Source: Sporosarcina sp. HYO08 (GTDB lineage Bacteria > Bacillota > Bacilli > Bacillales_A > Planococcaceae). From it: a DNA stretch of 64,000 nt. Under the pieces are notes generated by a model. The model did no database searches. It worked only from the letters and a program-made list of their open reading frames with translations, and was not told the origin of the DNA. A program made the translations under genes and the position numbers. Location of the stretch: NCBI RefSeq assembly GCF_001563475.1, contig NZ_LPUT01000001.1:372001-436000 (forward strand), in the 5' to 3' direction. This document shows positions 8,562 through 47,652 of the stretch, piece after piece (the stretch's first letter is position 1; each line of letters starts with the position of its first letter).

Positions 8562-10838
8562 ATGAAAAGTAGAGGACGGATTATAGCGTTCCTATTATTG
8601 CTCGTCGTTTTTGCAACGACGATTGGAACGACATCCAATCCGATTGTGAAAGATGTAAAGCTTGGACTTGATTTACAAGGCGGTTTTGAAGTTTTATATC
8701 AAGTTGAGCCGTTGAAGAAAGACGGAGAATCGAAAGTAACAGAGAGTATGGTGACGGATACGGCCAGTGCTCTCGGACGACGGGTCGATGTGCTCGGTGT
8801 AAGTGAACCGATCATTTCAGTCGAGTCAGGGAATCGTATTCGTGTACAGCTTGCCGGTGTAGAAGATCAGGAATCCGCACGTGAATTGCTTTCCACGCAA
8901 GCGAACTTAACGTTTAGGGATGCCAATGACAATTTGCTTCTCGATGGCACGGATTTGAAAGAAGGAAAAGCCAAAGCCAATTTTGGCGAAAATGGGAATC
9001 CAGTCGTTACGCTGGAAATGAAAGATCCTAATAAGTTTGGCGAAGTGACAACTAAAGTTTCAAGCATGCCGGCACCGGATAATGTACTTGTCATTTGGCT
9101 CGACTTTGAAGAAGGCGTCGATTCTTATAAAGAAGAGATGATGAAGCCGAATCCAGCATTTGTATCGGATCCGCGCGTACAATATCCGATCAACTCTTCA
9201 AATGTTGAGATCTCAGGTTCTTTTTCCGTTGAAGAAACGAAAAATCTCGCGGGTATTTTAAATGCTGGGGCATTACCTGTTCACTTAGAAGAAATTTATT
9301 CAACATCCATCGGTGCTCAGTTCGGTGAACAAGCGTTAAATAAAACAGTATTTGCTGGGACTATCGGTATTGCATTGATTTTCCTCTTCATGCTTGTGTA
9401 TTACCGCTTACCTGGATTTGTTGCCGTTGTTACACTATCGATCTATATTTATTTAATCTTGCTTGTCTTTACGCTGATTAATGGCGTACTGACATTGCCG
9501 GGGATCGCGGCGCTTATGCTCGGAGTCGGTATGGCAGTCGATGCGAATATCCTAACCTATGAGCGAATTCGAGAAGAACTTCGCGTTGGGAAATCGGTGA
9601 AGACATCATTCCAAGCAGGGGCGAAACAAGCATTCACGGCTATCTTGGATGCGAATATTACAACGATTCTAGCAGCGGTCGTTCTCTTCATCTTCGGGAC
9701 AAGCTCTGTTAAAGGGTTTGCATTGATCTTGATTATTAGTATTCTTGTCAGCTTTGTGACAGCTGTATGGGGATCCCGACTGTTGCTTGGCCTCTTGGTA
9801 AATAGCGGCAGCCTTGACGGAAAAACAGAACTTTTTGGTATTTCGAAAAAGAAAGTTCATGCTCCTGAAGAAGGATTAGAAACACTTGATCTTACAACGA
9901 AATTCGATCGCTTCGATTTTGTCGGTACGCGGAAGAGATTTTATGTGCTGTCGATGATTCTTCTTCTTGCAGGTGCGATTATGCTCGGTGTATTCAAACT
10001 GAATCTTGGTATCGATTTCTCGAGTGGTACACGTGTTGAAGTTCTGTCGAACGAACCATTGGTGGAAGCTGATCTTCAACAACAACTAGAAAAAATTGGC
10101 CATCCATCCAGTGATATCGTTATTTCTGGCGAGACTAAAAATATTGGTGTTGTCCGGTACAAAGAAGATTTCAATCAGGAAGAAGTCAACAAATTTAAAG
10201 CGGATCTTGCTGCGGTTTATGGTGCCGATCCGAATGTATCAACCGTTTCACCTACGGTCGGTAAAGAGCTTGCGAAAAACGCATTTTATGCACTGCTCTA
10301 TGCAGCCCTTGGCATTCTAGTCTACGTGGCTTTCCGTTTTGAATGGCGCATGGGGGCGGCGACAATTATTGGGCTTATCCATGACGCATTCTTTATGTTG
10401 GCTATATTCAGCATCTCGCGTCTTGAAGTAGACATTACATTCATCGCGGCCGTCTTGACGATTGTTGGGTATTCCATCAACGATACGATTGTTACGTTCG
10501 ACCGAATTAGGGAAAACCTTAATCGCCGCGGCACCATTAAGGATGCAGCGGAACTTGCGGATATTGTCAATAAATCCCTGCGTCAGACATTGGGACGCTC
10601 TGTCAATACAGTTCTGACTGTGGTCTTTGTCGTAGTGGCACTTATGCTAATGGGTGCTGAATCCATTCGACCTTTCTCGATTGCACTTCTGATCGGACTA
10701 ATCGCAGGAACCTATTCTTCGATTTTCATTTCCGCCCAAATTTGGTATGACTTGAAAAAACGAGAAATGAAAAATAAAGGGTCGATTAAAGTCGAGAAAG
10801 AGAAAAAGCAATGGGGATCAGACGAACCCGTTGTCTAA
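8562..10838 (+). CDS. secDF: Fused protein translocase subunits SecD-SecF
   Basis: This 758-residue single polypeptide joins SecD and SecF, as in Bacillus. It uses the proton gradient to aid late steps of Sec export. SecD features are the DLQGGFEVLYQV start, the large external loop and TM4 with GIAALMLGVGMAVDANILTYERI. SecF begins around residue 455 (DRFDFVGTRKRFYVLS, GIDFSSGTRVEV) and ends with AAVLTIVGYSINDTIVTFDRIRE. The two RND halves give 12 predicted membrane helices. The ATG at 8562 follows GAGGGGGAAAAAGGGATT. An earlier in-frame start has no support. Confidence 0.95.
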   Translation: MKSRGRIIAFLLLLVVFATTIGTTSNPIVKDVKLGLDLQGGFEVLYQVEPLKKDGESKVTESMVTDTASALGRRVDVLGVSEPIISVESGNRIRVQLAGVEDQESARELLSTQANLTFRDANDNLLLDGTDLKEGKAKANFGENGNPVVTLEMKDPNKFGEVTTKVSSMPAPDNVLVIWLDFEEGVDSYKEEMMKPNPAFVSDPRVQYPINSSNVEISGSFSVEETKNLAGILNAGALPVHLEEIYSTSIGAQFGEQALNKTVFAGTIGIALIFLFMLVYYRLPGFVAVVTLSIYIYLILLVFTLINGVLTLPGIAALMLGVGMAVDANILTYERIREELRVGKSVKTSFQAGAKQAFTAILDANITTILAAVVLFIFGTSSVKGFALILIISILVSFVTAVWGSRLLLGLLVNSGSLDGKTELFGISKKKVHAPEEGLETLDLTTKFDRFDFVGTRKRFYVLSMILLLAGAIMLGVFKLNLGIDFSSGTRVEVLSNEPLVEADLQQQLEKIGHPSSDIVISGETKNIGVVRYKEDFNQEEVNKFKADLAAVYGADPNVSTVSPTVGKELAKNAFYALLYAALGILVYVAFRFEWRMGAATIIGLIHDAFFMLAIFSISRLEVDITFIAAVLTIVGYSINDTIVTFDRIRENLNRRGTIKDAAELADIVNKSLRQTLGRSVNTVLTVVFVVVALMLMGAESIRPFSIALLIGLIAGTYSSIFISAQIWYDLKKREMKNKGSIKVEKEKKQWGSDEPVV

Positions 10839-39842: not shown

Positions 39843-40206
39843 TTATTCGCTGTATTCATGTTTAAATAGTTGGTAGAGTTTTACGATTGCCCGTTTTTCA
39901 ATACGGGAGACATAACTTCTTGAAATGTTCAGTTGTTCGGCAATTTCTTTTTGGGTCATTGGCCGATCATCGAGCAGACCATAGCGTCGTTGGATAATTT
40001 CCAACTCCCGGTTGTCAAGCTTCCCAAGATGTCGATATAACCGTTCTTTCCGCTCTTTACCTTCCACCGCTTCGATTGGCGATTCTTCGTCAATTTGGAG
40101 CAGATCTGCAATTTGCAAAGATTGCCCATCCTTATCCATACCAATTGGGTCAAACAAGGAAACGTCTTTTTGTACTTTCTTTTGCGTGCGAAGATACATT
40201 AAAATT
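39843..40206 (-). CDS. sigK: sigK 3' segment: C-terminal half of sporulation sigma-K, separated by the skin-like element
   Basis: This segment encodes the last 120 residues of sigma-K: the end of region 2 (ILMYLRTQKKVQKDVSLFDPIG), region 3 (IADLLQIDEESPIEAVEG) and region 4 with the helix-turn-helix MTQKEIAEQLNISRSYVSRIEKRA. It has no start codon or ribosome binding site of its own. The open frame upstream of 40207 belongs to the element. Joined at the shared CGA (40207-40209 with 47013-47015), it continues the N-terminal half in frame: codon 113 is Glu either way (GAG on the N side, GAA on the C side). The arrangement corresponds to B. subtilis spoIIIC. It is functional only after excision in the mother cell. 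Confidence 0.93.
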
Positions 40207-40216
40207 TCGATTCTAA
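40200..40216. other. Attachment site at the left end of the element (sigK C-terminal side)
   Basis: Core CGA on the minus strand (40207-40209), context ATTAGAATCGAAATTTTA. Aligned with the other end by reading frame, 12 of 18 positions agree (40199-40216 against 47005-47022). Confidence 0.85.
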
Positions 40217-40238
40217 TGTCAATAGTGTTGCATGTCAA
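40210..40238 (-). promoter_or_regulatory. Outward-facing sigma-A-like promoter abutting the attachment core
   Basis: On the minus strand TTGACA (40233-40238), exactly 17 bases, then TAGAAT (40210-40215), whose last base touches the crossover core at 40207-40209. In the chromosome it points into the sigK 3' half. In the excised circle it would point across the joined site toward the small ORF and recombinase gene. The TTGACAT of the -35 is repeated 16 bases downstream. Confidence 0.6.
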
Positions 40239-40282
40239 GTCTGAAAAAATAAATAAAGACGGAAGCATTTCGCCCCGTCCCG

Positions 40283-40861
40283 TTATACGTTCATCTTGAT
40301 TTGAGATTCTTTGAACAATTCCACGCTTGTCTTTGTCGCCGACTTGACTTCTTCTTCCGTCCGCTTGTTCCGTTCACACCAATAAATGAAATCAAGATAA
40401 TCGTCAACCGACAATCCATTGACTTCCGCCAAATAGCAAAGAAGATCGTTCAATTTGTCTTCGTCGATCAATGCTTCGATTTCGGGTTCAAAAACCCAAT
40501 CAATAAAATTCTTCGAACTCTTTCTCATGTTCAACGTCCGATCAAGCGGAATAACATTTTCAATCGTCGTCCCCAAGTGCATATTTTCTAACGGAATCAC
40601 ATGTTCAAGCGAAATGTCGGTCGAATCTGTAAGGGCACACCGTCCGCCAAATCGTTCTTGAATGTCTGTCCATACTTGCGGCGGAAGATCGTTCGGCAAC
40701 GCCAACAAGCGGGCACGACGGCGTTGGTTCTTCGCTTTTAGATAATCGGGGTTCGCACGGTTGAATGCACGTTGTTTCGCCCGTTGACATTCCTTGCAAC
40801 GAGTTTTCCAATACGGATAGAATTCGGCTTCTTGTTCGCAATCCCTACAATACATTTTCAT
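40283..40861 (-). CDS. HNH endonuclease with N-terminal zinc ribbon
   Basis: This 192-residue protein has two CxxC pairs at the N-terminus (C5/C8 and C22/C25), probably a zinc ribbon, followed by a basic stretch. The HNH core has C75 in GRCALTDS, H87 in ISLEHVIPLEN, and Asn residues in NVIPLDRTLNMRKSSKNF. Similar HNH proteins occur in phages and in mobile elements beside packaging genes. A helical C-terminal third is of unknown role. AAAGGGGG precedes the ATG by ten bases. TTGACG with an AT-rich -10 candidate lies about 60 bases upstream on the minus strand. It is the only element gene at the sigK 3' side. Confidence 0.82.
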   Translation of the reverse strand: MKMYCRDCEQEAEFYPYWKTRCKECQRAKQRAFNRANPDYLKAKNQRRRARLLALPNDLPPQVWTDIQERFGGRCALTDSTDISLEHVIPLENMHLGTTIENVIPLDRTLNMRKSSKNFIDWVFEPEIEALIDEDKLNDLLCYLAEVNGLSVDDYLDFIYWCERNKRTEEEVKSATKTSVELFKESQIKMNV

Positions 40862-41130
40862 GATGATTGTTCCCCCTTTGTCGAATGAATCGGCTACATT
40901 GGTTTTATCATGGCGGCTTCATTGCGTCAAACATATAAAAAGATTTTGCGATTTAGGTTGTTAAATAACCATTCGGTAGAACTATGATATGTAACGAAGA
41001 AAATTCATTCGCAGGTTGCCGACAATTCGGGACTTGACGTTGCTTTGCCGCCGCTATCGGGAAGCGACTTTTTGTGAATCGGGATAGTGCAAAATTGAAT
41101 ACATGCTTGTGAAAGATCAAGTAATAGGTA

Positions 41131-41218
41131 TGTGAAGCCTATTTCACAACCCCATAGTGAGGCCTATTTCACATGAACTAGAACTTATTACTTGAACTAG
41201 AAAGTTCTTTAACTAGAA
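41131..41218. repeat. Tandem operator-like repeats in the element
   Basis: Two copies of GTGARGCCTATTTCAC, each with inverted GTGA/TCAC ends, start at 41132 and 41157 (25-base period). Three copies of AACTAGAA follow at 41176-41183, 41195-41202 and 41211-41218. Such clusters are typical of repressor operators or iterons. Confidence 0.7.
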
Positions 41219-41601
41219 CTAAAAGAACAAGAAAAAGACAAGAACGAAGTTCAAAAGCAAGACCATTGATTCTTCAATACTAAAATCCAAGTATTGTCGA
41301 ACCAAGCATTCTAAAGAATGCAAATAACGGATTGAAGTTCAATTTCAGTTTCGAATAAATTCCAACAAAGATAATAATAAGATACATAAAATTAGATTCT
41401 TGCCACTTCCCAATGGTGGCTCGACATAAAGGTTACCCCAAACCATACGGCGGTCATGGACATTTTGTTCACGGCTTCCGTATTTTTATTTTGTCTAAAA
41501 GGTTGTTAAATACTTACATAGCCGAATTACATTTTGAAGCGGAATTCCCGTCACTCATTCGGGAACACGGCTTCCCCAAGTTTGATCGACCAATTCGATT
41601 G

Positions 41602-41629
41602 CCCGTCTAACCAACGGGTTTTTCTTTTT
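41602..41629 (+). terminator. Terminator just ahead of the XRE gene
   Basis: CCCGT (41602-41606) pairs with ACGGG (41614-41618), then TTTTTCTTTTT. It would end a plus-strand transcript initiated in the control region. Confidence 0.65.
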
Positions 41630-41674
41630 GGTCTGATAAGTGTATTTTACTTTAATTTTAAAGGGGGCGTTATT

Positions 41675-41899
41675 ATGGACGGATTTGACGTAAAGACATT
41701 ACGACATAGTCTTGGTTTGAATCAAATGGACTTCGCACATGAAGTCGGGGTCAAGCAACAATCCATTTCAAAGGTTGAAGCGGGTGTCATGCCATTGTCC
41801 GAACGATTAGAGCAACGAATCATTTATCGGTTCGGAGTTACCGAAGTAGAGATCGACGCAATCAAGGCGTTAAGGAAAATGCGACATGGGGGTGTATAA
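41675..41899 (+). CDS. XRE-family helix-turn-helix regulator
   Basis: The product is 74 residues. The HTH_3 fold spans residues 5-60: LRHSLGLNQMDFAHEVGVKQQSISKVEAGVMPLSERLEQRI. Small Cro/CI-type proteins like this control lysogeny or maintenance genes of mobile elements. AAAGGGGGCG precedes the ATG at 41675; the upstream open frame crosses a terminator and is not used. The next gene begins two bases after its stop. The likely targets are the repeats at 41131-41218 (inference). Confidence 0.85.
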   Translation: MDGFDVKTLRHSLGLNQMDFAHEVGVKQQSISKVEAGVMPLSERLEQRIIYRFGVTEVEIDAIKALRKMRHGGV

Positions 41900-41900
41900 C

Positions 41901-42344
41901 ATGCGATACGCAACGGAAGAAGCGTTCGGATTGTCGCCACGTGACATTGAGATTGCCGAAGACATTATCGGCATGAAGGCGACGAAGACGACATTCAAAG
42001 AGATTGCGGAAAAGCATTCGATTAGTGACCGCCAATTGCGGAACATTCGACGTCAAAAGGTTTTCCGTGAATATATTCGAGAACGGACGCTTGAACGTTT
42101 TGAAGATGAACAAGGCGACATTCTTGCCGTACTTGTCGCAAAGGCGAAGCAAGGAAACATGAAGGCTATCCAAATTTATACGGATATTGTCGGCTTGAAA
42201 CGTCCAAATCAAATCGAAGTCAAAACGGAACTTCGCCGATCTACACGGGATTTGAGCAACGAAGAATTGGAAGCGGAATTTGCTTCGATTCAAGCCGAAC
42301 TTGCCGAACTACTTGGCAAAGACGAAGAACAAATATTGAACTAA
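41901..42344 (+). CDS. Phage HTH protein resembling small terminase subunits (phBC6A51-like)
   Basis: This 147-residue protein has an N-terminal helix-turn-helix (about 20-60, MKATKTTFKEIAEKHSISDRQLRNIRRQKVF), a helical middle (AKQGNMKAIQIYTDIVGLKRP) and an acidic Glu-rich tail. The layout resembles phBC6A51-family proteins and phage small terminase subunits, which recognise packaging sites. Family placement is from memory of the pattern and is tentative. The ATG at 41901 has GGGGGTG six bases upstream; the earlier ATG at 41886 overlaps the XRE gene and is less likely. Confidence 0.65.
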   Translation: MRYATEEAFGLSPRDIEIAEDIIGMKATKTTFKEIAEKHSISDRQLRNIRRQKVFREYIRERTLERFEDEQGDILAVLVAKAKQGNMKAIQIYTDIVGLKRPNQIEVKTELRRSTRDLSNEELEAEFASIQAELAELLGKDEEQILN

Positions 42345-42361
42345 AAAAGGGGGAAACCATT

Positions 42362-42967
42362 ATGAAGCTAATCAAGAACGAAAAATTAGAAAAGATCAAT
42401 GCAAGGTTGAAAGAAGTTGAAGCCAAGCGGGACGCAATTCAATCGGAAGTTGACGAAATCGAAGCGGCACTTTCCCAATCGGTTGCACTTTACGCAATGG
42501 GCGAAGTTGACGAAAAGGATATTCAAGCGGCAAAACAATTGTTGCACGAAAAGAAGATCGAGTTTGCGGAAGTGGAAGAAATGATTTCGAGAATTCGAGC
42601 GGTTCGCAAGACGGTCGCAATCGAATCAATTCCGTTTGTCAAAGAATCCCGTAAAAAGAAGGTTGCGGCGATTCAAAAGAAGTATGTCGATCAAATCGAA
42701 CACGTTCACAAAGCACGTGCGAAATTCCTTGAAGAACTTGCGGCACTTGGGAAGATCAAGAACGAAGTCGGGTCGATCAACTTCGAATATAACGATCTAA
42801 TGCAAGAACTTGGCGGAAAAGGCGACGTTTACGGAGCGGCGATCAATGAAAGAACGGTCATTTCTGGCGGCTTCACTTCGCCAACGTATTGTCTTGGTGT
42901 AGACGAAAGAACGCAAAAACAATCATATGCTTCGGGAAGTGTCCCGCACGGATTAGGGGGGAACTAA
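42362..42967 (+). CDS. Coiled-coil protein of unknown function in the element
   Basis: The product is 201 residues. Residues 3-40 and 60-95 form strong coiled coils (LEKINARLKEVEAKRDAIQSEV, ARAKFLEELAALGKIKNEV further on). The last 50 residues are Gly-rich and probably disordered (GGKGDVYGAAINERTVISGG). There is no signal peptide, membrane segment or recognised motif. Phage capsid-scaffold or host-interaction roles are possible, but nothing in the sequence decides. AAAGGGGG is its ribosome binding site. It is part of the plus-strand operon, two bases ahead of the next gene. Confidence 0.75.
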   Translation: MKLIKNEKLEKINARLKEVEAKRDAIQSEVDEIEAALSQSVALYAMGEVDEKDIQAAKQLLHEKKIEFAEVEEMISRIRAVRKTVAIESIPFVKESRKKKVAAIQKKYVDQIEHVHKARAKFLEELAALGKIKNEVGSINFEYNDLMQELGGKGDVYGAAINERTVISGGFTSPTYCLGVDERTQKQSYASGSVPHGLGGN

Positions 42968-42969
42968 TT

Positions 42970-43257
42970 ATGAAAAAGATTCAATATGACAATTTGAACT
43001 ATACACCGCCAAAACGATCGGCGATCGACGAATTCGCCCAATGGTATGAAGAAAATGGAACGAGCAAGCCGAATGACACGCCTTCAAGCGATTCGGTCGA
43101 AAGTCTTCGTAAGGCATACGAGCAAGACCCGTCTTCATTGAACGGCTTGCAACTAATGTCTTTAGGCTTTGCCGATCTTAACGCCGAACAAGAAATGAAT
43201 TCGAAAGCACATCGAAAGGCGGCGAATGATTATCACCACAAGGACGGCGACGAATAA
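42970..43257 (+). CDS. Small hypothetical protein in the element operon
   Basis: The product is 95 residues and hydrophilic, with a charged mixed composition (MKKIQYDNLNYTPPKRSA at the start; DDYHHKDGDE-like acidic and His-containing end). AGGGGGG lies seven bases ahead of the ATG at 42970, and the gene starts two bases after its neighbour's stop, indicating an operon. I do not recognise the family. Confidence 0.7.
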   Translation: MKKIQYDNLNYTPPKRSAIDEFAQWYEENGTSKPNDTPSSDSVESLRKAYEQDPSSLNGLQLMSLGFADLNAEQEMNSKAHRKAANDYHHKDGDE

Positions 43258-43337
43258 GGCTTTGATATATGTTGGAACGATTCGGGGACGCTTGCGAGCG
43301 TTCCTTTTTTAATTCCAACGAAAAGGGGGGTCGGGGA

Positions 43338-43661
43338 ATGCGGGACATTACAGATCAAGTCATGAATGAATCGGAATTCGATTTTGTCGGTGATAAATAC
43401 TTCGAAAGATTCAAGGGGAGATCGTTTCCCGAAGGTCTTGGAAAATCGAAAAAAGCGGTTTGGGTGGATTTGTACGAACTAATGAATGAACGTCGGAATC
43501 ACGCATTGCAGATGTTTGAAAATGAACCGAACAAGACGGTGTTCGACGTTGCAACAATCACCTTGCTTCCTGTTCGTGTTGTAAAGCGATTGAAGCAGGA
43601 GTTCGAACAAAGAATCGATTGGCTACGCCGCAACTATTTAGGCGAATCATTCGACGATTAA
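43338..43661 (+). CDS. Hypothetical 107-residue protein in the element operon
   Basis: The ATG at 43338 follows GGGGGGTCGGGGA. The protein is acidic and helical. A segment KTVFDVATITLLPVRVVKRLKQEFEQRI near the C-terminus could form a helix-turn-helix, hinting at DNA binding, but this is weak. No family recognised. An in-frame extension from 43269 is rejected for lack of a ribosome binding site. Confidence 0.7.
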   Translation: MRDITDQVMNESEFDFVGDKYFERFKGRSFPEGLGKSKKAVWVDLYELMNERRNHALQMFENEPNKTVFDVATITLLPVRVVKRLKQEFEQRIDWLRRNYLGESFDD

Positions 43662-43690
43662 ATAAAAATGGGGAAGGGGGGTTATCAATT

Positions 43691-44326
43691 ATGTTTGTAA
43701 GAAATATTGGGGTTGTAACATTCGAAGCACAAAACGAGAATCACGGGAAACTGATGAAATATTTCTATCGAAAGAACGGTTGGCATGGACTTCGTAAGTT
43801 CAATTCGTTCAAGGATAACGGCGACGGGACAGTCACTTTGTTTTTGATTAGAGGTTATGAAACAATCATTTCAGCCGAATGCTTGCCATTGGTCTTGGAA
43901 ACGTCAAAAGTAAGTATCTCAATCAAAATGAGCGGCATTTATGCGACAACCCGAATCAAAGAGAAGACGACGGATTTGCACCGATTGTTCATGCGTGAGG
44001 AACTTGCGAAATATGAAGGTTTCGAAAAGGAAACGGGAATGTCGATTCAAGTCAATCACAGAAATGAGAATCCGCTTGACAACCGATTGTCGAACTTGGA
44101 AGTCGTCACCGACCGAGAGAATTATTTAAAGTACCAATTGAACCACGCAAAAGGTTATTACAAAACACCAAGCGGCAAGTTTGAAGTAAAGTTCAGAAAT
44201 AAGAACGTCGGAACATTCGAAACCGAAGCGGAAGCAAGAAAAGCATACGTTCATGCCGTGAAAAAAGAGATCAAGCGGCTTGAAGAAATACGAATGAATT
44301 GGTTAAAGTCGAATGGTCACTTATAA
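43691..44326 (+). CDS. HNH endonuclease with C-terminal AP2-like DNA-binding domain
   Basis: This 211-residue protein has an HNH_3-type core around residues 97-140 (LHRLFMREEL, VNHRNENPLDNRLSNLEVVT, the conserved N-H-N residues present) and an AP2/ERF-like segment at 156-190 (GYYKTPSGKFEVKFRNKNVGTFETEAEARKAY). The combination is that of free-standing phage HNH homing endonucleases. It may be a passenger gene. AAGGGGGG precedes the ATG at 43691. The last gene of the plus-strand operon; about 890 bases without a supported gene follow. Confidence 0.85.
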   Translation: MFVRNIGVVTFEAQNENHGKLMKYFYRKNGWHGLRKFNSFKDNGDGTVTLFLIRGYETIISAECLPLVLETSKVSISIKMSGIYATTRIKEKTTDLHRLFMREELAKYEGFEKETGMSIQVNHRNENPLDNRLSNLEVVTDRENYLKYQLNHAKGYYKTPSGKFEVKFRNKNVGTFETEAEARKAYVHAVKKEIKRLEEIRMNWLKSNGHL

Positions 44327-45157
44327 TCGAACTTGGGGACGTTGGAATGACGTTTCCCCTATTACATATTTAAGCGTTGAAGAAACGCAATAGATCGAAT
44401 TAGAAACGAATTGTTGAAGCGTTGGGCACTTCGTTTGTAAATACGAATCATAAATTCCCCGCAAGACGTGCCGTTTGTGTTCCGATATGTCCGAAACTTC
44501 CGCAACAAGGAAACGACGCAACGCCTAGAGCCGCAAGGGATAGAGCCGTTTTACATGTCGATCTAATTGGACAAAGCGGAAGTCGGGTTGAATCGTTGAA
44601 CGTCGTTCACTTTCAAATCGTTGAATAATATAATCGAATATCAATTGCGACGAATCACTTTATAACATGACCGCAATCACGACGAAAAGGTATTACAAAC
44701 GTTGGTAGATCAAGGCGGACGAAATGTCTTCCGTCGTATAAATCTAATTATACGCCGAATAAATGTAATGCGAATGTCAACGTGAACTGTATCGAAGCAA
44801 GCACGAACCGCATTGCGTTTGACATTAGATTACTGATTGATATGACGTGTTGTCTTCCGTATGAATATTCACCGCATGTTATAACGCCACACGAAGCCAT
44901 ACAAGCCGCCATATATCGTTGCTATCCAATCCACGACCCAAGCATTCGGAATCGTTTTCAAGCGACGTCAAGCAAGCACACGAAGCGTCAAGCATGAAGC
45001 AACACGGCGGAATATTTTTAGGGGGGTACACGGGGGGGACGGGGGGTCTATTCTGCCGCAGAAGGTGAATCGAAAATATACATACCAAATTTTGAAATGT
45101 CGGGTCATGCGTTTGCAATCGAATGACATATCGTAACAAAAGTATGCCACGTGGCAC
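44327..45157. other. Long untranslated stretch inside the element
   Basis: No reading frame here has both a ribosome binding site and protein-like content. Two open frames (44422-44628 and 44782-44997, plus strand) use element-like codons but lack start signals. It contains the G-rich cluster at 45014-45050 and a perfect palindrome TGCCACGTGGCA (45145-45156). It may hold a degraded gene, a noncoding RNA or a packaging/origin sequence; the sequence alone does not tell. Confidence 0.5.
45019..45048 (+). other. G-tract cluster, candidate quadruplex or packaging site
   Basis: Three runs of six, seven and six G within 30 bases (GGGGGGTACACGGGGGGGAC, then GGGGGG). The seven-G run could split to give four GGG tracts. 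Similar G-rich sequences occur near phage packaging genes, but that link is only suggestive. Confidence 0.4.
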
Positions 45158-45158
45158 A

Positions 45159-45192
45159 AAAGAAAAAGACGCCGCCCACATGGGTGACGCCT
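45159..45192 (-). terminator. Terminator after the recombinase gene
   Basis: On the minus strand GGCGUCACCC pairs with GGGCGGCGUC (two G-U pairs, one mismatch), followed by UUUUUCUUUU. Confidence 0.65.
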
Positions 45193-45213
45193 GCGTTTGG
45201 TTTGAACCGAATC

Positions 45214-46734
45214 TTACATACGAATAAATTCGACCTTGCCGCTTGCATATATCCGAACTTCACGGAAGACTTTTCGGAGGAAATCTTGCTTGCGTTCAAT
45301 CGAAAGATCGGACGTATCTTCCCGCAAGTATTGTTCGATCGTTTCATTCAATATTTCTTCGGTAAATTCGTTGTCTTGAATGTCAACGAGAAGTGCGGCG
45401 GTTTCTTCCCGTACTTTCAACAAATGTTCTTCTTTGTCTTTCAGTTCCTTCAATTGATTGCGAATATCATCTTCGTCCACAAGATCGGCATTATTCGTCA
45501 TGAAGTCGAGAAGACGCTTCCGCCCCGTTTTGATTCGTTCAAGTTCATTGTCAATTCGTTGAAGTTCGGATTCTTCGAATGAAAGGGAAGCTTCGTTGTC
45601 AACGCTTGCGGCGGTTTCGGATAACGCTTGCCCCTTCGTTGACATTAGATTGACGAATTGTTCCCAAACGAAGGCGTCGAGGTCTTCGCATTTGATTTTG
45701 TTGCCGCAACCTTGAAACTTCGTCCCCGCTTGACTTTTGAAATCGGTATATTCAAAGACATAACGACCCCAATTCTTCGCACGGCGTCCCGTCATGGTGT
45801 TGCCACAATCGCCACAACGAACCATTCCGCTTAATAGATACGTGTTTTTCGGTTGACCTGCCCAACGGCGACGGGATTCTTGCATTAGTTGTTGAGCATA
45901 TTCGAACGTTTTCGTGTCGATAATTGCGGGAACTTCGACCCCAATCCATTCTTCACGGGGGCGTAAGGTCATTCGAACTTTGTCTTCATCATCTTCTTTA
46001 TATTTATTGGCAAGCATTCCTTCGGTGTTCCATTTGTTGTGATAGAACGTTCCTGTATACGTTTCATTCATTAGGATTTGACGAACGACTTGCCTATGCC
46101 ATTTTCCGACCCGTCTTTTCGTTGGTATTCCTTTATCGGTCAAGTAATTTGCGATTCCATTTATGCCACGTACCCGACCCATTGGATTCGTGAACAATTC
46201 GAAGATCAATTCCACGACTTTCGATTCGGATTCACATATTTCCATTTCGCCCGCTTCTTTGTTGAACTGATATCCGTAAACCTTGACGTCCTTCACGACT
46301 TTTCCTTGCTTCGCTTTTTCACGGCGACCCCGTGTCATTCGTTCATTGATCTTCGCTTTTTCGAATTCGGCGACCGCCCCCCGCATTTGATAGAAAAGCA
46401 TTCCTTCGGGGGACTTCGCATAATCGCCATTGACGAAAACCAATTCCGCACGTTTTTCGATTTCTTCGGATACGATCAATTGATTCATTAGTTTACGGGA
46501 TAGGCGGTCGGGGTCGTAGACGATCACCTTGCGAATCAATCCATCCCGAATGTCATTCCGCAATTTCGACAATGCGGGACGTTCAAGGAATTCCCCCGAG
46601 TACCCGTCATCTACATATTCCATTGTTTCCGCATTGCTTCCCGCCTTTTGCATACATTGGCGAATTTGATCTTTAAGAGAGTAACCGCTTTTCGCTTGTT
46701 CTTCTGTACTGACACGTGCGTATAGTGCTATCAT
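45214..46734 (-). CDS. spoIVCA: Large serine recombinase, SpoIVCA-type site-specific recombinase
   Basis: This 506-residue recombinase has an N-terminal resolvase domain with the catalytic Ser9 in LYARVSTEEQAKSGYSL and the conserved Arg in YDPDRLSRKLMNQL. The recombinase domain (about 160-270, GINGIANYLTDKGIPTKRRVGKWHRQVVRQILMNETYTG), a zinc ribbon (CGDCGNTMTGRR ... GCGNKIKC, about 305-350) and a coiled coil (about 385-455) follow. It is the only recombinase in the element, and the element splits sigK, so it should excise the element in the mother cell. Transcribed in the same direction as sigK. AAGGGGA lies upstream of the ATG, inside an overlapping ORF. Confidence 0.93.
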   Translation of the reverse strand: MIALYARVSTEEQAKSGYSLKDQIRQCMQKAGSNAETMEYVDDGYSGEFLERPALSKLRNDIRDGLIRKVIVYDPDRLSRKLMNQLIVSEEIEKRAELVFVNGDYAKSPEGMLFYQMRGAVAEFEKAKINERMTRGRREKAKQGKVVKDVKVYGYQFNKEAGEMEICESESKVVELIFELFTNPMGRVRGINGIANYLTDKGIPTKRRVGKWHRQVVRQILMNETYTGTFYHNKWNTEGMLANKYKEDDEDKVRMTLRPREEWIGVEVPAIIDTKTFEYAQQLMQESRRRWAGQPKNTYLLSGMVRCGDCGNTMTGRRAKNWGRYVFEYTDFKSQAGTKFQGCGNKIKCEDLDAFVWEQFVNLMSTKGQALSETAASVDNEASLSFEESELQRIDNELERIKTGRKRLLDFMTNNADLVDEDDIRNQLKELKDKEEHLLKVREETAALLVDIQDNEFTEEILNETIEQYLREDTSDLSIERKQDFLRKVFREVRIYASGKVEFIRM

Positions 46735-46867
46735 TGTTCAGTCGCTTCCCCTTTCGTATTGAATCTTTTATTGCGGTGTAAACGTCAACTATTGATTGGT
46801 CGGTTGCGTCGTCTTCGATTATGATGGGAAATAATTTGCTTGCGGAGATATAACCTTTCTTGCTCAT
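46673..46867 (-). CDS. Small ORF overlapping the recombinase start; candidate directionality or regulatory protein
   Basis: The product is 64 residues (ATG 46867, GGGGGTGA eight bases upstream). The N-terminal 45 residues look structured (MSKKGYISASKLFPIIIEDD, DQSIVDVYTAIKDSIRKG), and the basic C-terminus overlaps the first 62 bases of the recombinase gene in another frame. Coupled translation is likely. Small proteins encoded beside large serine integrases often set recombination direction, but no similarity to a known factor is visible, so this is a proposal. Confidence 0.6.
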   Translation of the reverse strand: MSKKGYISASKLFPIIIEDDATDQSIVDVYTAIKDSIRKGKRLNNDSTIRTCQYRRTSEKRLLS

Positions 46868-46990
46868 GGAGAACGTCACCCCCGTAATTTTTTCGTGTTG
46901 CTCAATTTCACTTGTGGGTCATGAATCGGTTATTGTGACGTTTGTTATGAAGTTTGAAGTAGATTGATTGTTGCGTGGTATTTTATAACG

Positions 46991-47350
46991 CTACCCATTT
47001 GACTTTACATTCTCGTTTTCAATACAGCGTGCAGCGTAAGTCGCCAACTTTGTTTTGCGGTCGGGTGTAAAACTATTGACCGCTTTCATTAAACCGATCG
47101 TTCCAATTGAAATATAATCGTCTAAAAGCTCGTGCTTTGGATGGAATTTTTTTACGATATGTGCGACAAGCCGCATATTGCGCTCAATGAGTTCGTCTTT
47201 TGCATCCTCGTCACCTTCTGCTAGGCGTCTCAAACAGTCCGCTTCTTCTTCTCGAGACAGGGGACGTTGAAATGCCTGCCCCCGGATATAACCGATCATT
47301 GCAGGAATCTCAAGCCACATTTGAACAAAAGCCATTACTAACCCGCTCAT
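46991..47350 (-). CDS. sigK: sigK 5' segment: N-terminal half of pro-sigma-K
   Basis: The first 113 residues of sigma-K end at 47013; the last six codons before the stop at 46991 are element sequence. The start has AGGAGG seven bases upstream. A hydrophobic pro-sequence (MSGLVMAFVQMWLEIPAMIG) precedes LSREEEADCL, as expected for pro-sigma-K that is cleaved by the SpoIVFB protease. Regions 1.2-2 include ERNMRLVAHIVKKF, DDYISIGTIGLMKAV and KLATYAARCIENE. A CATACAAC hexamer-like match to sigma-E -10 elements lies near 47370 but is too close to the start to be certain. Corresponds to B. subtilis spoIVCB. Confidence 0.93.
   Translation of the reverse strand: MSGLVMAFVQMWLEIPAMIGYIRGQAFQRPLSREEEADCLRRLAEGDEDAKDELIERNMRLVAHIVKKFHPKHELLDDYISIGTIGLMKAVNSFTPDRKTKLATYAARCIENENVKSNG
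47005..47022. other. Attachment site at the right end of the element (sigK N-terminal side)
   Basis: Minus-strand context GAAAACGAGAATGTAAAG, core CGA at 47013-47015. Joining to the left core restores Ile-Glu-Asn-Glu-Ile-Leu-Met in frame. Confidence 0.88.
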
Positions 47351-47652
47351 AAGTCCACCTCCTGTGTCGTTGTATGACAGCATATGCGGTCAGCTCTTGC
47401 TGTATCACCGTTTTTTTCGTCGGACAAGCGAAGAAGGGCTGTCTACATCTGACTTTTTTCACAAGGTAGAATGGCGATGCTTAGATGGGGACAGTTTCGT
47501 ATTGATTGGGGGAAATTCATTGCATTCAAATCCTAACTGTTTGAATAAAAACAATTTTTCTGGATTCATTTGATGCTTGTCTAAATATGGTATGTACGAT
47601 AAGCGGTTGTGTTATAATCGTTTCAGAATTAGTCTTACATCGGAGTGATTGC
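47351..47652. other. Divergent intergenic region between sigK and the yqeG homolog
   Basis: It contains the sigK ribosome binding site and, on the plus strand, a TATAAT at 47613-47618 that can serve yqeG. Sporulation promoters for sigK are expected here, but I could not place a well-spaced -35/-10 pair. No other gene seen. Confidence 0.5.

What the first reader, a model, noticed from the sequence alone, without database searches (positions are those of the whole stretch)
39843..47350. sigK is split by a compact 6.8-kb skin-like element
The two halves of pro-sigma-K are 6.8 kb apart on the minus strand and rejoin in frame at the conserved IENE-ILM boundary used by the B. subtilis skin element. 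The rejoined gene has 233 codons, with codon 113 encoding Glu from either side. The intervening DNA has one large serine recombinase and few other genes. It is about seven times smaller than the B. subtilis skin, so it looks close to the minimum needed for a developmentally excised element.
Basis: partly seen in the sequence, partly recalled or inferred. Interest (0 to 1): 0.95.

Follow-up and report, generated by a model that had tools for sequence, protein, structure and literature searches.

The report
Compact mobile element splitting sigK
A 6.8-kb mobile DNA element cuts the sporulation gene sigK in two in this bacterium and is predicted to be spliced out of the mother cell's chromosome during spore formation, likely by borrowing sigK's own promoter to switch on its cutting enzyme; it is a known kind of element, and smaller ones exist at the same site.

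Summary
sigK, the only copy found in this 99.97%-complete genome, is split at codon 113 by a 6,806-bp element; the halves rejoin in frame as 233 codons. 65 of 68 genomes of the genus have sigK in one piece, and 30 of 30 fetched sister genes carry the empty site. The ends match the half-sites of a family of sigK-integrating elements. One large serine recombinase is overlapped at its start by an Skr-like 64-codon gene, the arrangement published for the B. subtilis skin.

'Near the minimum' fails: 10 of 18 measured codon-113 elements are smaller, down to 3.0 kb; one of about 2.8 kb was seen later. The recombinase family occurs in 47 of 398 sampled Bacilli.

New is the wiring. 38 of 49 family rows have a SpoIIID-box/sigma-E-like promoter just before skr; the window's clade (0 of 5) lacks it and sits directly downstream of, and codirectional with, the sigK 5' half. 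I infer read-through from the sigK promoter, which excision would sever. No excision was measured.

The parts
47012..47350 (-). sigK 5' half, codons 1-113 (ORF runs on to a TAG at 46991-46993)
   Evidence: start codon context conserved in sister genes
39843..40208 (-). sigK 3' half, codons 113/114-233 and stop
47361..47390 (-). sigK promoter region, GCATATGCTGTCATACAACGACACAGG with CATACAAC at 47376-47369; strongly conserved in sister genomes
   Evidence: 11 sister genes shown; sigma-E/K -10 consensus recalled
46985..47040 (-). attL: sigK codons up to 113 plus element left arm GAGAATGTAAAGTCAAATGGGTAGC
40185..40235 (-). attR: element right arm CTATTGACATTAGAATCGA (the same 19 letters as in the Sutcliffiella horikoshii element) plus sigK codon 114 on
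46673..46867 (-). skr-like gene, 64 codons from ATG (68 from GTG at 46879); overlaps the recombinase start by 62 nt in another frame; predicted recombination directionality factor
   Evidence: B. subtilis Skr described in PMC6957869 (passages)
45214..46734 (-). large serine recombinase, 506 aa (Resolvase, Recombinase, Zn-ribbon domains)
46868..46990 (-). gap between the stop of the sigK 5' ORF and skr: no terminator-like site, no family promoter found; 8-bp inverted repeat AACGTCAC/GTGACGTT over the skr ribosome site
43619..44326 (+). HNH endonuclease (PF13392), possible homing type
43269..43661 (+). 130-aa ORF, no family
42889..43257 (+). 122-codon frame whose last 96 codons start at an ATG; related to ORFs in the A. 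macyae and S. horikoshii elements (40 and 48%)
42362..42967 (+). 201-aa coiled-coil-like protein, 51 and 56% identical to proteins of the same two elements
41886..42344 (+). phBC6A51-type HTH protein, terminase-small-subunit-like (weak: phrog_2538 E 9e-5; low-confidence model best matches PDB 2ao9)
41675..41899 (+). XRE-type HTH regulator
40283..40861 (-). endonuclease VII/HNH-like protein, reads towards attR
   Evidence: phrog_1035; no Pfam family above its cut-off

Best explanation
This is a 6,806-bp sigK-intervening element of the skin type, integrated at codon 113 of the only sigK found in the genome, that is predicted to be excised in the mother cell by its own large serine recombinase with a small Skr-like protein, both likely transcribed by read-through from the sigK promoter. 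Shown by sequence: the split, the in-frame join, the att half-sites, the skr-recombinase overlap, their position directly downstream of the sigK 5' half in the same direction, and that scans found neither the family's own promoter motif nor a terminator-like site in the gap. Inferred: the sigma-E/SpoIIID-controlled sigK promoter transcribes sigK-5', skr and the recombinase as one unit; Skr turns the recombinase from integration to excision; attL x attR recombination rebuilds sigK and releases a circle; excision separates skr-recombinase from that promoter, so the switch shuts itself off. The forespore keeps the element and passes it on.
For: In-frame join and single sigK. Empty site in 30 of 30 sister genes examined. 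In 12 of 12 loci found by the pattern scan of titled genomes, the recombinase lies beside a sigK piece (11) or inside a split sigK (L014). Half-sites match the family's palindromic attP, and a 37-kb circular record of Alkalihalophilus pseudofirmus carries a 52% identical recombinase followed by the joined attP. An overlapping skr ORF in the same relative frame in the 49 non-redundant rows (rows were kept only where the script found such an ORF; four other loci gave none); B. subtilis Skr overlaps spoIVCA by 101 nt and is needed to rebuild sigK (PMC6957869, passages). The window's five-row clade has 100/100 support, all five have the sigK 5' piece just upstream and codirectional, and 0 of 5 have the promoter found in 38 of 49. 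No terminator-like site in the gap of the four clade members scanned. Conserved sigK promoter region. Host has a SpoIIID-like gene, E 4e-27, though under the family cut-off. Both sigK halves show few amino-acid changes (pN 0.045-0.083) against near-saturated silent ones (pS 0.64-0.93) in 7 sister comparisons.
Against: No excision junction, circle or transcript of this element was seen; none of the tools holds reads. Read-through is inferred from layout and from absence of a known motif; an unrecognised internal promoter is possible. The S. horikoshii gap has a sigma-70-like site (9 of 12), and L113 and L115 have one each inside skr. The inverted repeat over the skr ribosome site could hamper Skr translation; the window's fold there is no more stable than shuffles (z +0.70; 146 of 200 fold at least as well). 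In four kin the sigK 5' ORF stays open into skr, which would couple translation; in the window two stops break that frame, so the window copy may be less efficient. Purifying selection on the halves may predate the insertion. L118, L122 and L100 also lack the promoter without being in this clade, and the tree does not place L013, the other row with this layout, next to the clade. Identity of this skr as a directionality factor is by position, frame and weak similarity.
Confidence: 0.66

Rival explanations
1. Same element and same excision, but skr-recombinase has its own, diverged mother-cell promoter inside the 123-nt gap, as in most of the family.
For: 38 of 49 rows of the family have one; L013, which has the same layout, keeps one with a spacing one base longer; TTCATA is conserved in the gap of four of the five clade members.
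Against: Best motif scores in the five are at shuffle level (p 0.43-0.73); no ACAA-N9-12-CATA in the five, and an ATA-N13-18-CATA match in one (L113) only; in the three rows where CATA was the best-scoring place (window, L113, L114) it lies 77-79 nt from skr instead of 22-29.
Confidence: 0.25
2. The element is a decaying remnant that no longer excises efficiently; the strain makes sigma-K poorly or not at all.
For: Two stops break the reading frame that runs from sigK-5' into skr in the four closest kin; the element is 0.5-0.6 times the length of the three kin measured, and its two endonucleases and coiled-coil protein gave no convincing defence-system hit where kin have such cargo.
Against: Recombinase, skr, both half-sites and both sigK halves are intact; sigK protein changes are rare.
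Confidence: 0.15
3. It is primarily a phage satellite that parks in sigK: terminase-like gene, HTH, no capsid genes, moved by a helper phage.
For: phBC6A51/TerS-like gene with better-scoring homologues in two kin (phrog_2538 1.7e-11 and 1.5e-11); the same two kin have replication-initiator-like genes; apart from terminase-small-subunit families, no convincing head or tail hit in the window element's nine ORFs (best 0.07, a tail family on the recombinase).
Against: No replication family found among the window element's ORFs, no helper or packaging evidence; the TerS-like model is of low confidence (pLDDT 66).
Confidence: 0.3

Closest known systems
skin element of Bacillus subtilis 168 (skr-spoIVCA unit); PMC6957869 and PMC4191935, passages read
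   Same: Splits sigK; large serine recombinase; small RDF gene whose 3' part overlaps the recombinase start in another frame; rejoined sigK in frame.
   Different: 48 kb (PMC13141910, PMC10745906, passages) against 6.8 kb; spoIVCA is expressed from a sigma-E promoter of its own, here none of the family's type was found; the recombinase here is codirectional with sigK-5', in B. subtilis it faces the other way (PMC10745906, passage).
skinCd of Clostridioides difficile (CD1231, CD1234); PMC5025042, passages read
   Same: sigK split by an element with a serine recombinase and a small directionality factor (72 aa).
   Different: Different site and orientation from the B. subtilis skin; recombinase next to the sigK 3' part and constitutive, RDF alone under sigma-E/SpoIIID.
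Insertions in B. cereus group sigK (22-kb island at position 195; 38-39 kb at position 423); PMC10745906, passages read
   Same: sigK-intervening; excision shown there for the 22-kb and one 38-kb insertion; the 22-kb island carries restriction-modification genes.
   Different: Other sites in sigK, larger.
Alicyclobacillus phage MMB025 (105 kb); PMC13141910, passages read
   Same: Recombinase 50% identical to the window's, prophage in sigK; a near-identically sized viral contig (L094) has an skr-like ORF, and MMB025 shows the same letters upstream of its recombinase.
   Different: Complete infectious phage; no convincing structural gene was found in the window element.
gin element in gerE of B. 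cereus ATCC10987; PMC5595907, passages read
   Same: Non-phage intervening element, serine recombinase plus RDF (GirC, GirX).
   Different: Other gene, 28.6 kb, three recombinases.

Membership tests
skin-type sigK-intervening element | sigK split, halves rejoin in frame | tested here: met
skin-type sigK-intervening element | Large serine recombinase of a family that lies in sigK | tested here: met
   sequence identity to SpoIVCA itself not tested
skin-type sigK-intervening element | Small RDF gene (skr) overlapping the recombinase start | tested here: met
   (as an ORF of matching position and frame; RDF activity untested)
skin-type sigK-intervening element | attL and attR carry the family's half-sites | tested here: met
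skin-type sigK-intervening element | Own sigma-E/SpoIIID-type promoter before the excision genes | tested here: not met
   found in 0 of 5 rows of the window's clade, in 38 of 49 rows overall. Common in the family but not part of its definition (C. difficile's recombinase is constitutive, PMC5025042).
skin-type sigK-intervening element | Excision in the sporulating mother cell | not testable with these tools
   needs sporulating cultures
phage satellite (PICI-like) | Terminase small subunit or other packaging gene, no capsid genes | tested here: inconclusive
phage satellite (PICI-like) | Own replication module | tested here: not met
   no replication family among the window element's ORFs; present in two kin
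phage satellite (PICI-like) | Mobilised by a helper phage | not testable with these tools
   -

The most novel reading that the evidence does not exclude
The window's clade has given up its own sporulation promoter and wired its excision operon to the promoter of the very gene it interrupts: the first mother-cell transcription of sigK makes Skr and recombinase, excision completes sigK, and by the same cut the operon loses its promoter, a one-shot, self-disconnecting developmental switch. In the four kin the truncated sigK reading frame even stays open into the start of skr, and an inverted repeat lies over the skr ribosome site, as if Skr could be made only by ribosomes arriving from sigK.
Probability: 0.45. 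Interest if true: 0.65.

Novelty: new variant of a known kind. Interest (0 to 1): 0.5.

Why it matters
It makes a question about developmental DNA excision testable: whether an intervening element can do without its own timing signal by taking the host gene's promoter, which would tie excision to demand and end it automatically. The comparison also shows that this recombinase family is common (47 of 398 sampled Bacilli, 28 of 145 genera), that elements at one codon range from about 2.8 kb to over 50 kb, and that close kin of the window element carry anti-phage genes, so a sporulation gene may serve as a safe harbour for mobile defence cargo. Small members give compact recombinase/Skr/att sets for study.

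Tried and rejected
Rejected: 'minimum-size element' (10 of 18 measured elements smaller; I fetched 20 regions picked, partly because they looked small, and two, L116 and L131, could not be measured, so the fraction is not a census). 'Second sigK makes this copy irrelevant' (none found). 'Artefact of assembly': both halves and the whole element lie on one contig. 'Known RNA element in the gap': no Rfam family at gathering score in 39.5-47.7 kb. Tried, weak: a hairpin over the skr ribosome site; the single fold is not significant, and a stem test over 48 rows gives a low combined p (1e-8) but a median p of 0.24 and related rows, so I use it only as a hint. Translational coupling from sigK-5' into skr: open frame in 4 of 5 clade members, chance 0.10-0.20 each, no coding signature between L113 and L115 (differences 6, 15, 10 by codon position) and two stops in the window; not claimed for the window. 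In one search I reset the start of skr in L053 by hand, because one search had chosen a start too far upstream.

Searches for print. Their listings showed nothing on sigK elements with the word Sporosarcina (the genus is a guess of mine, 0 papers), on Kiwa with sigK and 'intervening' (0 papers), on read-through from sigK into a recombinase (4 papers, listing only), or on sigK split at several sites (listings only). Subscription papers and preprints are not covered.
Full report
What is there. The window's minus strand carries the two parts of sigK, 6.8 kb apart, among neighbours that look like udk, greA, mtnN, yqeG and yqeH (names recalled from the ORF sequences, not from a family search). Codons 1-113 occupy 47350-47012 and codons 114-233 with the stop occupy 40205-39843; CGA is shared at the junction, and the joined frame has 233 codons. 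No second sigK was found in the genome as held.

Sister genomes. Of 68 genomes of the genus, 65 have one continuous sigK match; the window's genome is the only one with the halves apart by an insert; G059 has a frame break without an insert and G045 has no sigK-grade match. The 30 sister genes I examined, of the 65, carry the empty site, GARAAYGARAT. The recombinase at E <= 1e-100 occurs in 1 of 261 genomes of the order, this one, which suggests that the element came from outside the order.

The family. A pattern scan of a one-genome-per-species collection found 12 titled genomes with a 50-75% identical recombinase; in 12 of 12 sigK sequence lies in the fetched locus, next to the recombinase in 11. 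In an even sample of the class, 47 of 398 genomes, in 28 of 145 genera, have the family at E <= 1e-120. Titles include Alkalihalobacillus macyae, Sutcliffiella horikoshii, Paenibacillus turpanensis, P. flagellatus, Halalkalibacter akibai, Siminovitchia fordii and Geomicrobium. Element lengths at codon 113 in the 18 regions where both sides were measured, of 20 fetched, run from 3.04 to 19.0 kb, 10 of them below the window's; positions imply others of about 38-55 kb; L142 later gave about 2.8 kb.

Attachment sites. Element ends compare to a palindromic attP: right arm ..CTATTGACATTAGAATCGA.., left arm ..GA.ATTCTAATGTCAATAG... The window's right arm has the same 19 letters as that of the S. horikoshii element; its left arm reads GAGAATGTAAAGTCAAATGGG. 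A circular 37,136-bp 'plasmid' of Alkalihalophilus pseudofirmus (NZ_CP144225.1) with phage genes and a 52% identical recombinase has, right after the recombinase, the joined form TATTGACATTAGTATTGAAATCCTAATGTCATTA: the free circle of a family member in a public record. Whether that circle arose by excision or is a phage-plasmid is not settled.

The excision genes. An ORF of 50-94 codons overlaps the start of the recombinase in the same relative frame in the 49 non-redundant rows, which were kept because the script found such an ORF; four other loci (L062, L101-L103) gave none, L062 apparently through my filter alone, and loci with a short or edge-cut recombinase were not tried. The proteins align. 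In B. subtilis the same-placed gene skr encodes a 64-aa directionality factor that overlaps spoIVCA by 101 nt (PMC6957869, passages). In the window it is 64 codons long and overlaps by 62 nt. The part outside the overlap differs at codon positions 1, 2, 3 by 10, 9, 19 sites over 44 codons against A. macyae, 14, 9, 25 over 43 against S. horikoshii and 18, 12, 23 over 43 against P. turpanensis: the third-position excess of a coding gene, weaker in the last.

The promoter contrast. A motif GGACAAGC-N7-GCATAYCC, matching a recalled consensus for a SpoIIID box and a sigma-E -10, lies 22-29 nt before skr. A simple pattern test found it in 32 of 48 rows against 0.82 expected from shuffles; a leave-one-out profile built on 31 sites scored 38 of 49 rows at p <= 0.02. 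The five rows of the window's clade score p 0.43-0.73. The remaining six that miss the line are L013 (same motif with one more base of spacing), L094 and L132 (near misses), L118, L122 and L100. The clade (window, S. horikoshii, A. macyae, two Paenibacillus) has 100/100 support in a 48-row tree. Layout: among the 49 rows, the sigK 5' piece is just upstream and codirectional in 6 (the five and L013), the 3' piece is just downstream and codirectional in 23, other layouts in 5, and 15 have no sigK piece within 420 nt, in some because contigs or loci end. So, in this clade, lack of the own promoter goes with lying under the sigK promoter. L013 shows that the layout can also keep a promoter; the tree leaves its place open and does not put it beside the clade. 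The gap has no terminator-like site in the four members scanned. The sigK promoter region is strongly conserved between the window and 11 displayed sister genes. From this I infer read-through; it is not shown.

Other contents. The window element has an XRE regulator, a phBC6A51-type HTH protein that is weakly terminase-small-subunit-like, a coiled-coil-like protein, two small ORFs and two HNH-type endonucleases. A structure model of the HTH protein (pLDDT 66) best matches PDB 2ao9, the phBC6A51 protein, at E 2e-3, short of the 1e-3 line. The A. macyae and S. horikoshii elements share the terminase-like, coiled-coil and 97-codon genes and also carry KwaA and KwaB (Kiwa), a type II restriction enzyme and methylase (A. 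macyae) and a D12 methylase (S. horikoshii); the P. turpanensis element has an OLD/GajA-like gene. Of the ORFs of these kin that I gave to the family searches (not all), none hit a capsid, portal or tail family. The window element appears as a reduced member without recognised defence cargo; only three of its ORFs were put to the defence library.

A wider result met on the way. In 16 of 16 genomes re-searched because a sigK piece looked short or missing, sigK is in three or four pieces. The breaks are near codon 66, at codon 113 and near codon 143; in some genomes pieces lie on different contigs. G408 has four pieces over 88 kb. Nine recombinases in these loci are all large serine recombinases; ten compared, the window's among them, form three groups by site, 52-66% identical within and about 22-37% between groups. 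Positions 195 and 423 of B. cereus sigK are published single insertions (PMC10745906, passages). My searches listed no paper on several at once. The window's sigK has only the codon-113 break.

Verdict. A real, probably active, ordinary-sized member of a common kind, with an unusual wiring in its clade.

Noticed in passing
G408:C4:968631-1056873 (L137-L139); also G382, G488, G503, G614 (four pieces) and G270, G300, G329, G348, G358, G363, G393, G527, G528, G590, G606 (three pieces): sigK is split at two or three different sites (near codon 66, at 113, near 143) in 16 of 16 genomes re-searched; the sites go with three groups of large serine recombinases. In one G408 mother cell three excisions would be needed to rebuild one gene.
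   Followed up: partly
L147 (G503:C1), sigK residues 141-236 at 14928-14641 (-), residues 110-145 at 9001-9108 (+): The last sigK piece is on the opposite strand from the others, so recombination there would invert rather than delete, unless the assembly is wrong.
   Followed up: no
L116 (Halalkalibacter akibai, G624:C140), 1285-1626 and 9749-10090: Two copies of the sigK 3' half with the same protein sequence over the stretch read and 296 of 342 matching bases, each preceded by its own attR-like arm.
   Followed up: no
L134 (NZ_CP144225.1): A record filed as a plasmid of Alkalihalophilus pseudofirmus is a phage-like circle with a sigK-family recombinase and joined attP.
   Followed up: partly
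L113, L115, L114: sigK-inserted kin of the window element carry Kiwa genes, restriction-modification genes and an OLD/GajA-like gene.
   Followed up: partly
L113, L114, L115, L011, between sigK codon 113 and skr: The truncated sigK reading frame stays open through the gap and ends 4 or 17 nt inside skr in four kin; two stops break it in the window.
   Followed up: partly
window 46868-46945 (-) and family members: An inverted repeat covers the skr ribosome site in the window (AACGTCAC/GTGACGTT) and in some relatives; in some others it would pair the promoter's CATA region with the ribosome site, so that only longer, read-through RNAs could form it. Statistical support is mixed.
   Followed up: partly
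window 40283-40861 (-): The endonuclease VII-like gene reads towards attR; in the excised circle its transcription would run across attP into skr and the recombinase.
   Followed up: no
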